A DNA stretch of 64,000 bases from assembly GCF_019967995.1 (NCBI RefSeq), contig NZ_CP065377.1, forward strand, positions 1,426,001 through 1,490,000, read 5' to 3'. This stretch comes from Faecalibacterium prausnitzii (GTDB lineage Bacteria; Bacillota; Clostridia; Oscillospirales; Ruminococcaceae). Positions 15,750 through 20,104 of the stretch are shown piece after piece. The translations under genes were made by a program, and so were the position numbers. The notes beneath the pieces were generated by a model. The model ran no database searches, had not been told where the DNA came from, and saw only the letters and a list, made by a program, of their open reading frames with translations. Each line of letters opens with the position of its first letter. Within the stretch, counting starts at the first letter, position 1.

Positions 15750-16435
15750 TCTTCGTTTTCCTCCTCGTTGTCGGCCAGCTTGTAGCCGACTTTCCGCACG
15801 GTGCAGATGTACTTTCCGGCATCGCCCAGCTTTTTGCGCAGGGTGCGGATGTGCATATCCACGGTGCGGCTTTCCACTGAGATGTCGGTGCCCCACACCA
15901 CCTGCAAAATGGTCTCGCGGGTCACAACCAGGTTGGTGTTTTCCAGCAGCAGGCGGAGCAGGCTGTATTCCTTGTAGGTCAGGTCGATGTGGGCGTCGTT
16001 CACCGTCACGATGTGGCGGGCGTTGTCCAGCAGGATCTCATGGAAGGCGTAGACGTTCGTCTTTTCCTCCGGGGCCGAGCGGCGCAGCGCAGCCCGCACC
16101 CGGCTCAAAAACTCCATGATGCCAAACGGCTTGGTGATGTAATCGTCTGCACCGCAGTCCAGCCCGCGCACGGTGTCCAGCTCGCTGGATTTGGCCGTGA
16201 CCATGATGATGGGCAGGCGCCGCAGGGAAGGGGTGTTGCGCAGCTTTTTCAGGATGGAGAAGCCATCCTCACCGGGAAGCATGACGTCCAGGATGACAAG
16301 CTCCGGCACGGCAACATTCATGGCCTGCCAGAAACTCTCGGACGATTCAAAGCTCTGCACGTCGTACCCGCTGGACTGGAGCGCATACTGCTCCAGCTCC
16401 CGAATGGCGGCGTCGTCTTCTACGATATAGATCAT
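15746..16435 (-). CDS. phoB: PhoB/PhoP-type OmpR-family response regulator
   Basis: A 229-residue two-domain regulator. The receiver domain (1-118) has the acidic pair DD at 7-8, phosphorylation site Asp50 in LVILDVMLP, and the switch lysine in DYITKPFG. The C-terminal winged-helix DNA-binding domain (about 130-225) shows LTYKEYSLLRLLLEN and VDMHIRTLRKKLGD, with VRKVGYKL at the end. It overlaps the upstream transporter gene and the downstream kinase gene by four bases each, so the three are translated together. Predicted to activate its own operon through TTTACA repeats. Confidence 0.92.
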   Translation of the reverse strand: MIYIVEDDAAIRELEQYALQSSGYDVQSFESSESFWQAMNVAVPELVILDVMLPGEDGFSILKKLRNTPSLRRLPIIMVTAKSSELDTVRGLDCGADDYITKPFGIMEFLSRVRAALRRSAPEEKTNVYAFHEILLDNARHIVTVNDAHIDLTYKEYSLLRLLLENTNLVVTRETILQVVWGTDISVESRTVDMHIRTLRKKLGDAGKYICTVRKVGYKLADNEEENEE

Positions 16436-18234
16436 GCCTTGGGGTCCTCCTTTTCGCTTGCCACGGCGGGTTCACCGTCCGGGAAGAGATACCGCTCGCG
16501 GTAACGGTCCAGGCGGCGGCGGAACTGTTCGCTCTCCTTGGTGTCGTTGCCGTAGCGGAGATCGTTCAGATAGGCGTGGGTATCAAAGCTGTCCTGTGCG
16601 ACTTCGATCTGGGCAACGGCAACGTTGCTGCAGTGGTCGCAGACACGCTCATAGTTGGTCAGCAGGTCTTCCAGCACGAAGCCGTATTCGATGGAGCAAC
16701 TGCCAGCCTGCAGGCGGGCCACATGCCGTGCCTTGATGGCGCGGACCAGTTCGTCCACAACGGTCTCCATGGGTTCGACCTTGCTGGCCAGATGCAGGTC
16801 GGCCTTGCGGAACGCATCGGTCGTGCGGCTCAGCACATCCTGCACCGCGCCTTCCAGAACCTGCAGCTCCTCGTGCGCATCCTGGGAGAACACGATGTTC
16901 TTGGCGTGAATCTCTTCGGCAGAGCTGAGCAGATTCACGGAATGGTCGCTGATTCGCTCGAAATCGCTGATGGTGTGGAGCAGGGTGTTCACGCTCTGGC
17001 TGTCGGCGTGGCTCAGCTCCCGGCTGGACAGCTTGACCAGATAGGTGCCGAGGGCATCTTCGTACTGGTCTACCTTGGCCTCTTCGTCCCGGACTTTCTG
17101 GGCCAGGGTGTCGTCCCACTGGTGGGTCAGGCTCATGGCCTGCACCACACCCACGCGGGCCAGCTCGGCCATATCCGCCGTGGCGGCGCGGGCGCGCTCC
17201 ACAGCAACGGCGGGCGTCTTGAGCAGACGCTCATCCAGCAGGGCGAAGCTCTCTTTCTCGGCATCGTCCGGGATGGTGAGGATGGCCAGCTTTTCCAGAA
17301 CGTTGGCGAACGGCAGCAGGACCGCCGTGGCCGCAATGTTGAACACAGAGTGGATGACAGCGATGCCCCACGCCGTGACGGTATCGTTGACAAAGGTGAA
17401 GTGCAGGACCAGATTCAGGCCATAGTACATTGCCAGAAAGAGGGTCACACCGATGATGTTGAAGTACAGATGCACCATAGCGGCGCGGCGGGCATTTTTG
17501 TTGGCGCCCACAGAGGAGATCAGCGCGGTGACGCAGGTGCCGATGTTCTGGCCCATGATGATGGGGATGGCGCTGCCGTAGGTGATGACGCCGGTGGAGC
17601 TGAGTGCCTGCAGGATGCCGACGCTGGCGCTGGAGCTCTGGATGATGCCGGTGACGAGTGCGCCGACCAGAACACCCAGCAGCGGGTTGGAGAAGCGGAT
17701 GAAGAGGTTGGTGAACCAGACTTCATCCTGCAGCGGGGTGACTGCATTGGACATGGCGGTCATGCCGGTCATCAGAACGGCAAAGCCGATGAGGATGGTG
17801 CCGATGCCCTTCCGCTTTTCGCTCTTGCCCATGTAGAGCAGGATGCCGATGAAGGCCAGCAGGGGGCTGAACGAGGTGGGCTTGAGCAGCTGGATGAAGA
17901 AGCTGTCGCCCTGCAGGCCGGAAAGGCTCAGGATCCAGCTGGTGACGGTGGTGCCCACGTTGCTGCCCATGATGATGCCGATGGCCTGGTGCAGCTCCAT
18001 GATGCCGCTGTTGACGAAACCGACCACCATGACGGTGGTGGCGCTGGAAGACTGGATCACGGCGGTGACGCCGAGGCCCAGGAAAAAGCCCTTGAGCGGG
18101 TTATCGGTCAGCTTGCTCAGGATCTTTTGCAGCTGGCCGCCCGCCTGCTTTTCCAGAGCCTTGCCCATGATGTCCATGCCGAACAGGAACAGGGCCAGGC
18201 CGCCCAGGAGCGAAAAAACGTTGAAGATTGTCAT
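16432..18234 (-). CDS. Na/phosphate cotransporter with C-terminal PhoU-like domain
   Basis: A 600-residue protein of the NptA/YjbB (PF02690) family: two inverted repeats carrying the hallmark QSSSATT (near 60) and QSSSASVG (near 200) and about eight membrane helices in the first 310 residues, then a helical PhoU-like domain (about 340-560) with repeated metal-contact motifs such as E..SDH and ERVCDH. It imports inorganic phosphate with sodium. I start at ATG 18234 because GAGGA at 18241-18247 is a well-spaced ribosome binding site; an upstream GTG (18249) overlaps that site. First gene of the phosphate operon. Confidence 0.92.
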   Translation of the reverse strand: MTIFNVFSLLGGLALFLFGMDIMGKALEKQAGGQLQKILSKLTDNPLKGFFLGLGVTAVIQSSSATTVMVVGFVNSGIMELHQAIGIIMGSNVGTTVTSWILSLSGLQGDSFFIQLLKPTSFSPLLAFIGILLYMGKSEKRKGIGTILIGFAVLMTGMTAMSNAVTPLQDEVWFTNLFIRFSNPLLGVLVGALVTGIIQSSSASVGILQALSSTGVITYGSAIPIIMGQNIGTCVTALISSVGANKNARRAAMVHLYFNIIGVTLFLAMYYGLNLVLHFTFVNDTVTAWGIAVIHSVFNIAATAVLLPFANVLEKLAILTIPDDAEKESFALLDERLLKTPAVAVERARAATADMAELARVGVVQAMSLTHQWDDTLAQKVRDEEAKVDQYEDALGTYLVKLSSRELSHADSQSVNTLLHTISDFERISDHSVNLLSSAEEIHAKNIVFSQDAHEELQVLEGAVQDVLSRTTDAFRKADLHLASKVEPMETVVDELVRAIKARHVARLQAGSCSIEYGFVLEDLLTNYERVCDHCSNVAVAQIEVAQDSFDTHAYLNDLRYGNDTKESEQFRRRLDRYRERYLFPDGEPAVASEKEDPKA

Positions 18235-18280
18235 ATGTGCGTTCCTCACTTTTCATTGACGTGAAATTCTCCTGATTCTG

Positions 18281-18400: not shown

Positions 18401-18465
18401 GGTACGCATCCGGAAAAGCAGTAAAAACAAAACCAGTCCGGTGGAATCTCCGCCAGGCTGGTTGG

Positions 18466-18693
18466 TTAGGGTGTTTTCGGATATGGTTTCGGTTCATCGG
18501 TCAAGCCGAGAATATAATCTACGCTGGTATCGTAATATATGGCGAGTGCTTTGAGAACGTCTGTTGGAATATCGCGCTTCCCCATCTCATAATTGGAGTA
18601 ACAGACCTGTGTGCATTTCAAATAGGCCGCAAGGTCTTTCTGCATCAAATCCCGGTCTTCTCGCAAATCGCGGATGCGTTGGTACATAAGCAT
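18466..18693 (-). CDS. Small XRE-family helix-turn-helix repressor
   Basis: A 75-residue protein that is almost entirely one Cro/CI-type HTH domain: RIRDLREDRDLMQKDLAAYL, then the recognition helix region CTQVCYSNYEMGKRDIP and the hydrophobic core LKALAIYYDTSVDYILGLTD. Start could be ATG 18693 or ATG 18687 two codons later (GAGG spacing favours the latter). It is divergent from a 30-residue membrane peptide gene, and a perfect palindromic site lies between the two promoters. Its local GC is visibly lower than that of neighbours, hinting at transfer. Likely an autorepressor that also silences the peptide. Confidence 0.85.
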   Translation of the reverse strand: MLMYQRIRDLREDRDLMQKDLAAYLKCTQVCYSNYEMGKRDIPTDVLKALAIYYDTSVDYILGLTDEPKPYPKTP

Positions 18694-18723
18694 ACACCTC
18701 TACTCATGGATGCCGTTAACAAA

Positions 18724-18752
18724 AGTATAGGGAAAACATTTTGTTATATTGA
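18724..18752 (-). promoter_or_regulatory. Probable promoter of the XRE gene
   Basis: On the minus strand TATACT (18729-18724) with a weak -35 TCAATA (18752-18747) at 17 bases. The left operator arm (18735-18745) falls between the two elements. Confidence 0.45.
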
Positions 18753-18770
18753 CATATAAAACAAAATGTT
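18735..18770. promoter_or_regulatory. Palindromic operator between XRE gene and micropeptide gene
   Basis: AACATTTTGTT (18735-18745) and AACAAAATGTT (18760-18770) are perfect reverse complements, 14 bases apart, and each arm is itself nearly palindromic. One arm sits in the spacer of each divergent promoter, so bound repressor would block both. Confidence 0.7.
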
Positions 18771-18777
18771 ATATAAT
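18749..18777 (+). promoter_or_regulatory. Consensus sigma-A promoter of the micropeptide gene
   Basis: TTGACA (18749-18754), exactly 17 bases, TATAAT (18772-18777): a perfect consensus. The right operator arm fills most of its spacer. Such a strong promoter is typically kept under tight repression. Confidence 0.85.
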
Positions 18778-18844
18778 GGCGGCATGAAAAGATGATTGGA
18801 GCTCGAAATCATTAAAAAGTAAAATTGCTTGGAGGAGTAATCTT

Positions 18845-18937
18845 ATGACTTTGAACGAACTGTTTGTGTCTGCGCTCTTTTTGCTTCCGCCGATTCTCAT
18901 CGTGGTAGCGTTGGTGAAGTTTATTTTCAAAAAGTAA
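18845..18937 (+). CDS. 30-residue single-helix membrane peptide
   Basis: ATG 18845 follows GGAGGAG by 9 bases and opens a 30-codon frame ending TAA at 18935-18937. The peptide has a short polar start (MTLNEL), an unbroken hydrophobic core of about 20 residues containing PP, and a basic end KFIFKK, which predicts one membrane helix with the C-terminus inside. A perfect promoter and a strong terminator bracket it, so it is a real transcription unit. The shape recalls type I toxin peptides (Ldr/Fst-like), but no homologue is recognised; a regulatory or signalling micropeptide is equally possible. Confidence 0.7.
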   Translation: MTLNELFVSALFLLPPILIVVALVKFIFKK

Positions 18938-18962
18938 ATAAACCAACGAACTCGGAAGTGCG

Positions 18963-19017
18963 AAACACCCTGTTCACTGCACAGTAGAAACTGTGCAGCG
19001 AGCAGGGTGTTTTGCTG
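18963..19017 (+). terminator. Strong terminator after the micropeptide
   Basis: AAACACCCTG (18963-18972) pairs with CAGGGTGTTT (19004-19013), with an inner ACTGCACAG/CTGTGCAG stem, followed by a T-rich tract. Confidence 0.85.
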
Positions 19018-19075
19018 TTTTGGATCATATCAGGAAGATGTCAACATTTGATAGGAACTTTTCCCAAAAGAATCA

Positions 19076-19168: not shown

Positions 19169-20104
19169 ATGGCGAATTTTACCGTTTCGCTCAAGAAGCT
19201 GACCGAAAAGGTCAGCATGGATGTGGTCTACGCTCCGCAGGACCTCGAAAACATCAGCGTCGAGATCGCGGAAGTCAACCGTCCGGGTCTGTTCCTGGCG
19301 GGCTATTACGATTACTTTGATAAACTGCGGCTGCAGATCATGGGTCTGGCCGAGATGAACTTCCTGTCCGGCCTTTCGCCGGAAAAGCGCTACGAAGCGC
19401 TGGACCAGCTGTTCCGTCAGCAGCCGCCGGCTGTCATCGTGAGCCGCAGCGAGGAGCTGAAACCGTTCCCGGAGATGCAGGAGCTGGCCAGAAAGCACGG
19501 CGTGGCGCTGCTGCGCTCCAACGAAACGACCTGCACCCTGATGGGCAGCATCATCAGTGTGCTGAACCTGGAGCTGGCCCCCCGCATCACCCGCCACGGT
19601 GTGCTGGTTGAGGTGTACGGCGAGGGCATCCTCATTCTGGGCGACAGCGGCATCGGCAAGAGCGAGCTGGCGATCGAGCTGGTCAAGCGCGGCCACCGCC
19701 TTGTGGCCGACGATGCTGTGGAGCTGCGCAAGGTCTCGAACCGCCAGATCATGGGCACGGCCCCGGAGAACATCCGCCACTTCATTGAGCTGCGCGGCAT
19801 CGGCATCGTCAATGTGGCCCGCGTGTTCGGTGTGGGCGCGGTCAAGGTGAGCGAGAGTCTGGATCTCGTGGTCCAGCTGGAAGCCTGGGACCCCACCAAA
19901 AACTATCAGCGCACCGGTCTCGAAAGCGAGTATTACGAGATCCTGGGCGTCAACATCCCCAGCACCAGCATCCCGGTCTCGCCGGGACGCAACCTCGCCG
20001 TTGTGCTGGAAACGGCGGCCATCAACAACCGCCAGAAGAAGATGGGCTACAACGCCGCCAAGGAGCTGCTCATCCGTCTGGGCCTCGAAGGCACCATCGA
20101 ATAA
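19169..20104 (+). CDS. hprK: HPr kinase/phosphorylase
   Basis: HprK phosphorylates HPr on Ser46 and reverses it, driving carbon catabolite control in Firmicutes. The 311-residue protein has an N-terminal regulatory domain and a C-terminal catalytic domain with Walker A GDSGIGKS at 158-165, the acid/base region HRLVADDAVELR, and the HprK signature ELRGIGIVNVARVFG. The end region (VSPGRNLAVVLETAAINNRQKKMGYNA) matches the allosteric C-terminus. Ribosome binding site GGAGGAAG before the ATG. It heads a tight operon with murB, rapZ, whiA and dnaE. Confidence 0.96.
   Translation: MANFTVSLKKLTEKVSMDVVYAPQDLENISVEIAEVNRPGLFLAGYYDYFDKLRLQIMGLAEMNFLSGLSPEKRYEALDQLFRQQPPAVIVSRSEELKPFPEMQELARKHGVALLRSNETTCTLMGSIISVLNLELAPRITRHGVLVEVYGEGILILGDSGIGKSELAIELVKRGHRLVADDAVELRKVSNRQIMGTAPENIRHFIELRGIGIVNVARVFGVGAVKVSESLDLVVQLEAWDPTKNYQRTGLESEYYEILGVNIPSTSIPVSPGRNLAVVLETAAINNRQKKMGYNAAKELLIRLGLEGTIE

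What the first reader, a model, noticed from the sequence alone, without database searches (positions are those of the whole stretch)
18466..19017. XRE repressor and a 30-residue membrane peptide sharing a palindromic operator
Seen: a 75-residue XRE gene (-) faces a 30-codon frame (+) whose product is one hydrophobic helix with a KK end. The peptide has a perfect TTGACA-N17-TATAAT promoter, a good ribosome binding site and a strong terminator. Identical arms AACATTTTGTT and AACAAAATGTT fall in the spacers of both divergent promoters. The islet has lower GC than its surroundings. Inference: the repressor shuts off itself and a potentially toxic or signalling micropeptide; this could be a two-gene module not annotated by standard gene finders, in which a transcriptional repressor takes the place of an antisense RNA.
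Basis: partly seen in the sequence, partly recalled or inferred. Interest (0 to 1): 0.75.

Follow-up and report, generated by a model that had tools for sequence, protein, structure and literature searches.

The report
Swappable repressor switch driving membrane micropeptide
A small self-controlling DNA-binding switch, found in many gut bacteria in front of many unrelated genes, here sits in front of a predicted 30-residue membrane peptide inside a short inserted piece of DNA; what the peptide does is unknown.

Summary
The anatomy is real. An XRE repressor gene (true start probably 18687, 73 aa) diverges from a 30-codon frame with a 12/12 promoter, Shine-Dalgarno site and strong terminator. 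Two 11-bp palindromes (AACAWWWTGTT, 14-nt gap) lie at the divergent promoters; the pair occurs once in the 2.94-Mb genome and in none of 100 shuffles. By comparison, repressor, operator pair and bidirectional promoter form one conserved unit: 54 of 85 sequences (84 XRE loci plus the window) carry the pair at exactly 14-nt spacing, and operator-first searches led to an intact XRE gene at 15 of 18 places (three of the 18 repeat loci already known). The downstream gene is not conserved: 46 partners form 30 groups, and DNA similarity to three same-genus genomes ends at the -10 box. No such unit lies at 29 of 29 other hprK loci of the genus. The peptide has no significant homologue, but stand-alone membrane micropeptides recur behind this operator (3 of 54). 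Best reading: a portable autorepressed switch whose output gene is exchanged, here driving a membrane micropeptide. Toxicity, or the repressor acting as an antitoxin, is untested; RacR/YdaS is a published precedent for that arrangement.

The parts
18403..19050 (.). approximate extent of the inserted islet between a Na/Pi-cotransporter gene and hprK
   Evidence: blastn to the nearest relative L147 stops at 18402 and resumes at 19051, leaving 8 nt between (alignment); no XRE of this family or operator pair at 29 of 29 other hprK loci of the genus
18431..18463 (-). terminator-like hairpin after XRE
   Evidence: -16.6 kcal/mol followed by TTGTTTTT; not found by the scan
18466..18687 (-).
   Evidence: Pfam HTH_3 39.7 bits against cut-off 23; start codon from alignment
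18724..18729 (-). -10 element (TATACT) of the XRE promoter
   Evidence: conserved in the 54 operator-bearing sequences, 45 to 49 of 54 at each position; no good -35
18735..18745 (.). operator 1, AACATTTTGTT
18749..18777 (+). peptide promoter TTGACA-N17-TATAAT
   Evidence: 12 of 12
18760..18770 (.). operator 2, AACAAAATGTT, inside the peptide promoter's spacer
18845..18937 (+). 30-residue hydrophobic peptide gene
   Evidence: no Pfam or NCBIfam match; only a weak PHROG match, E 0.079
18960..19015 (+). terminator of the peptide transcript
   Evidence: -44.3 kcal/mol; not found by the scan

Best explanation
A portable, autorepressed genetic switch. A sensorless 73-aa XRE protein, presumably a dimer, binds two identical palindromes, one at each of two divergent promoters, and shuts down its own gene and the opposite gene (inferred from anatomy and conservation; binding not shown). 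Across Oscillospirales and other gut Clostridia the repressor, operators and both promoters stay together while the output gene is replaced just downstream of the -10 box (shown by comparison). In this genome the switch carries a stand-alone 30-residue predicted membrane peptide on a ~650-bp islet inserted between a Na/Pi-cotransporter gene and hprK. The peptide would be nearly silent while XRE is present and made in a burst when XRE falls; its most likely action is on the membrane or a membrane protein (inferred). What lowers XRE is unknown.
For: Operator pair at exactly 14-nt spacing, at most 3 mismatches, in 54 of 85 sequences against 1 of 382 background tiles, with both promoters conserved. 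Operator-first searches led to 18 other places: an intact XRE gene faces 15, a remnant a 16th; L185, L191 and L201 are the same DNA as L078, L080 and L074, so 12 of 15 without repeats; the reversed control pattern gave 0 in the three searches. Partner turnover: 46 partners in 30 groups; XRE pairs share a partner group in 10 of 20 cases at 90% identity or more, 12 of 101 at 80-89%, 1 of 673 at 70-79%, 0 of 187 at 60-69%, 2 of 54 at 50-59%. DNA similarity to G309, G310 and G321 runs from 18494 or 18497 to 18777-18779, the end of the -10 (sequences), with a 95-aa partner there in a different blastp group. No XRE or operator at 29 of 29 other hprK loci. Membrane micropeptides stand alone behind the operator in 3 of 54 (window, L061, L081), each followed by a terminator-like hairpin.
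Against: No binding, transcript or protein data. The peptide has no homologue, so its translation rests on Shine-Dalgarno site, promoter, terminator and a shuffle test. The XRE -35 is weak. The 54 sequences include close relatives (for example L083 and L084; L088 and L091; L102 and L104; L143-L145), so they are not 54 independent cases. 31 of 85 sequences lack the strict pair: three have it with a 13- or 15-nt gap (L079, L087, L090), and most of the rest are the weaker-scoring homologues L117-L140, of which only L117, L120 and L126 keep it, so these probably use other operators. One operator-like place, L195, has no XRE gene.
Confidence: 0.72

Rival explanations
1. Toxin-repressor (addiction-like) module: the membrane peptide is toxic and the XRE protein is its only antidote, acting at transcription as RacR does for YdaS.
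For: Hydrophobic 30-residue peptide with basic end, strong promoter, complete self-contained islet; membrane micropeptides recur behind the operator; published precedent for a divergent repressor whose loss is lethal (PMC5700373, passages).
Against: Many partners do not look like toxins (zinc ribbons, WG, RCC1 and BspA-type repeats, DUF5067, HlyD-like); peptide not conserved; toxicity not testable here.
Confidence: 0.17
2. The output is an RNA: the ~230-nt transcript from about 18784 to 19015 acts as a small RNA and the 30-codon frame is incidental.
For: Compact transcript with very stable terminator; no peptide homologue.
Against: A hydrophobic frame with a Shine-Dalgarno site is in 0 of 4000 shuffles; no Rfam match near a gathering score; partners elsewhere are mostly protein-coding.
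Confidence: 0.07
3. Decayed phage remnant: repressor and control region of a filamentous or other phage left behind with a chance frame.
For: Inovirus repressors of this fold exist; the bajarodino virus 42 repressor is 54% identical and also divergent; PHROG regulator matches.
Against: No phage gene recognised in the islet; promoter, Shine-Dalgarno site and terminator intact; the operator pattern has no exact match in viral contigs; the 80 relatives lie on genome contigs.
Confidence: 0.08

Closest known systems
RacR-YdaS/YdaT of the E. coli rac prophage (PMC5700373; passages read)
   Same: Repressor and a divergent gene share an intergenic region with palindromic repeats; repression alone silences the output.
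   Different: YdaS/T are not membrane micropeptides (recalled); RacR is in a prophage; toxicity shown there, not here.
CylR2 with CylR1 of Enterococcus faecalis (PMC3709268; passages read)
   Same: Repressor controlling overlapping divergent promoters, with a predicted membrane protein in the system.
   Different: cylR1 and cylR2 are transcribed in the same direction, opposite to the controlled operon; here the membrane peptide is itself the controlled divergent gene.
Inovirus repressors, RstR-like (L182 bajarodino virus 42; Pf4r, PMC8402870, passages read)
   Same: Small XRE/HTH repressor at a divergent control region; 54% identity to the L182 repressor.
   Different: Those control phage genes; the islet holds none that I recognised. 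RstR model score 36.8 is below its cut-off of 80. Pf4r is reported to bind a non-palindromic site.
Type I toxin-antitoxin peptides such as TimP (PMC7667032, passages) and DinQ (PMC3567139, search listing only)
   Same: Single hydrophobic micropeptide under tight control.
   Different: Control there is by a small RNA; here, by inference, by a protein repressor.

Membership tests
HTH_3 / XRE small repressors | HTH_3 domain above the curated cut-off | tested here: met
   39.7 bits against 23
HTH_3 / XRE small repressors | binds its own divergent control region | not testable with these tools
   conserved paired palindromes strongly suggest it
RstR family (NCBIfam NF041951) | score above the curated cut-off | tested here: not met
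   36.8 bits against 80
Type I toxin-antitoxin system | short hydrophobic peptide | tested here: met
Type I toxin-antitoxin system | antisense RNA overlapping or beside the toxin gene | tested here: inconclusive
   consensus scan lists no minus-strand promoter between 18777 and 19017 and Rfam gives two weak matches far below gathering scores; no RNA data
Type I toxin-antitoxin system | toxicity on expression | not testable with these tools
   needs experiment
RacR/YdaS-type toxin-repressor pair | divergent repressor and output sharing palindromic sites | tested here: met
RacR/YdaS-type toxin-repressor pair | output homologous to YdaS | tested here: inconclusive
   no Pfam or NCBIfam family matches the peptide; no direct comparison with YdaS was made
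RacR/YdaS-type toxin-repressor pair | loss of the repressor is lethal unless the output is lost | not testable with these tools
   needs experiment
CylR1/CylR2 | membrane protein encoded in the same direction as the repressor | tested here: not met
   peptide is divergent
Inovirus or other prophage | phage genes next to the repressor | tested here: not met
   islet holds only the two genes described; flanking genes are a Na/Pi cotransporter and HprK

The most novel reading that the evidence does not exclude
A mobile plug-in switch: the repressor-operator-promoter unit is the conserved and transferred part, it picks up new output genes at the transcription start, and in a subset the output is a membrane micropeptide toxin held silent only by the repressor, a protein-repressor counterpart of type I toxin-antitoxin systems.
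Probability: 0.15. Interest if true: 0.78.

Novelty: new variant of a known kind. Interest (0 to 1): 0.52.

Why it matters
Autorepressed divergent switches are textbook, but here the whole control unit stays intact while its output gene is exchanged among unrelated families across one bacterial order. That gives a natural experiment on promoter capture, a ready way to find unannotated micropeptides (read what follows AACAWWWTGTT-N14-AACAWWWTGTT), and a small repressor part from gut anaerobes that could be tested at once. Seven paper searches bearing on it listed no description of this system; I saw listings only, 10 of 10, 10 of 11, 3 of 3, 10 of 21, 9 of 9, 8 of 8 and 0 papers, and the library lacks most subscription journals.

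Tried and rejected
Conserved repressor-peptide module: rejected, no significant peptide homologue; none of the 29 weak family matches L002-L030 lies near the operator pair. Relation of the peptide to the N-terminus of a 163-aa partner (L073 group, MSLSDLF...): shuffle fractions 0.046 (L073), 0.05 (L085) and 0.232 (L093), L097 not among the 12 printed, out of 59 partners compared; two unrelated-looking partners had smaller fractions (L072 0.018, L080 0.032); not significant after multiple comparison. Plasmid or phage origin: no DNA match in plasmids or phages; the XRE protein has distant relatives in 40 plasmid and 95 phage records; viral contigs gave 2 XRE relatives and no exact operator match. 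L181, filed as a phage, was dropped as phage evidence because its frames look bacterial (my reading); it stays in the 85 as an XRE locus. Defence link: the 25 PADLOC families shown of 27 match one member each of 34 proteins, many of them ATPase-type models, best E 1.1e-25. Rfam: two weak matches only. Left out of the 85: L178 (XRE match at the very start of the locus), and the distant XRE loci L179, L182 and L183, never put in; nor were the XRE loci L032-L060 analysed for operators. Eight doubtful partner calls (L066, L069, L072, L075, L080, L096, L101, L111) were dropped before the 46/30 count; with them it is 54 partners in 37 groups. One search was wasted: my pattern had a 15-nt gap instead of 14 (394 genomes), and one search used the same wrong pattern in viral contigs. 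The first empty-site test looked at the wrong side of minus-strand loci and was redone on whole loci; of those 29, L172 and L174 have only about 250 and 1150 nt upstream of hprK and show no cotransporter flank, while 27 do. One of the 31 genomes of the genus gave no hprK match. Paper search served only to find the CylR2 review.

Full report
What is there. The window carries a divergent pair between a Na/Pi-cotransporter gene (16432-18249, minus) and hprK (19169-20104, plus). The minus-strand gene encodes an HTH_3 protein (39.7 bits, cut-off 23). The plus-strand frame 18845-18937 encodes MTLNELFVSALFLLPPILIVVALVKFIFKK. It has a 12 of 12 promoter and a hairpin terminator of -44.3 kcal/mol (the simple scan missed it). 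In 4000 dinucleotide-preserving shuffles of 18784-19030 no comparable hydrophobic frame with a Shine-Dalgarno site arose, and among 1064 tiles of the 64-kb window the only one is this frame.

The operators. AACATTTTGTT (18735-18745) and AACAAAATGTT (18760-18770) are separate near-palindromes and also reverse complements of each other. As a pair with a 14-nt gap they occur once in the window with up to 3 mismatches and in none of 100 shuffles, and once in the 2.94-Mb genome, exact matches with a 12-22 nt gap allowed. The second lies inside the peptide promoter; the first lies behind the -10 of the XRE promoter, whose -35 is weak.

Repressor and operator belong together. From 80 XRE homologues in named genome contigs (the best 80 of 108), three same-genus loci and one record filed as phage (L181), plus the window, 54 of 85 sequences have the pair with exactly 14 nt and at most 3 mismatches in total; 1 of 382 background tiles scores that low. 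In these 54 the partner's -35 and -10 and the XRE -10 are conserved, and conservation fades just after the partner's -10. Operator-first searches, blind to the protein, give the same link: 2 other places among 297 family genomes (exact), 13 among 325 order genomes (up to 2 mismatches) and 3 new ones among 63 genomes of another family, with zero hits for the reversed control pattern. Of these 18 places 15 have an intact XRE gene beside the operator; L187 has a remnant, L196 is a second operator on the same contig as L187 in front of a related partner gene, and L195 has none. Three of the 18 (L185, L191, L201) are DNA already held as L078, L080 and L074; without them it is 12 of 15. Four of the 15 XRE proteins (L176, L177, L186, L190) have a different-looking recognition helix.

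The output gene is exchanged. Partners were called by Shine-Dalgarno site, start codon and distance. Of 54, eight were doubtful and dropped; the remaining 46 form 30 groups by blastp. XRE pairs share a partner group in 10 of 20 cases at 90% identity or more, 12 of 101 at 80-89%, 1 of 673 at 70-79%, 0 of 187 at 60-69% and 2 of 54 at 50-59%. Pfam domains among 33 partners and the window peptide (34 scanned; 25 of 43 families shown) include zinc ribbons, DUF5067, ribbon-helix-helix, WG, LRR_5 (BspA type) and RCC1 repeats, ABC ATPase, TM2, GRAM and HlyD. In three genomes of the window's own genus a homologous XRE-operator unit lies elsewhere; DNA identity of 72-74% runs from 18494 or 18497 to 18777-18779, that is to the end of the -10, after which the sequences look unrelated and the output is a 95-aa protein.

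The islet is an insertion. The nearest relative by HprK (G303, 99%) has 8 nt where the window has about 648 nt (18403-19050). No XRE gene of this family and no operator pair lies at any of 29 other hprK loci of the genus; 27 of the 29 also show the cotransporter flank, and L172 and L174 are cut short upstream. G+C is 0.41 in the islet against about 0.60 around it. I recognised no target duplication or mobility gene, so how it arrived is open.

The peptide. No Pfam or NCBIfam match, a weak PHROG match (E 0.079), and no significant homologue in 297 family genomes or in the 30 other genomes of the genus. Yet stand-alone membrane micropeptides recur behind the same operator: 44 aa in L061 and 26 aa in L081, each alone in its blastp group and followed by a terminator-like hairpin; 3 of 54 in all. 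A fourth, 34 aa in L114, has a poor second operator and no good terminator, and a frame in L099 is cut by the contig end. Overall 27 of 59 partners, the window not counted, have a strongly hydrophobic segment.

Mechanism. Inferred: XRE dimers on both palindromes exclude RNA polymerase from both promoters. This gives negative autoregulation and near-silence of the output, with a burst when repressor is lost or diluted. The protein has no sensor domain. A cysteine two residues before the conserved Gln-Val of the recognition-helix region is present in 54 of 54, but these were chosen by similarity, and five of the 15 operator-first XREs lack it (L176, L177, L186, L190, L202), so redox sensing is only an idea.

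Comparison. CylR2/CylR1 (PMC3709268, passages) is similar in parts but wired differently. Inovirus repressors are relatives of the protein, but I recognised no phage gene here. The exchange of outputs behind a conserved repressor-operator unit is the part I found no report of, in the searches named under why it matters.

Noticed in passing
L187 and L196 (G534 contig C224, 322-357 and 1777-1812): Two operator pairs on one contig stand before two related large genes; only a remnant of an XRE gene stands before the first, so the operator can spread to a second gene or outlive its neighbour.
   Followed up: partly
L176, L177, L186, L190: XRE proteins with a different recognition helix (PQRTY instead of SQVCY) use nearly the same half-sites, extended to GAACAWWWTGTTC-like ends.
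   Followed up: no
L068 and L094; L073 and L124; L085 and L126: The same assembly carries two XRE loci with different outputs; cross-talk is possible in POC01 (L068, L094), whose two loci share the operator type.
   Followed up: no
G217 contig C13, 2004-2953: Three matches to this XRE family in a row on one contig.
   Followed up: no
L181 (MT838774.1): Record filed as a phage, but its frames look like bacterial metabolic genes beside an XRE-operator unit with a 51-aa partner; probably a mislabelled bacterial contig (my reading of translations).
   Followed up: partly
L073, L085, L093, L097: A 163-164-aa partner group begins MSLSDLF or similar plus a membrane helix, faintly like the window peptide; not significant.
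   Followed up: yes
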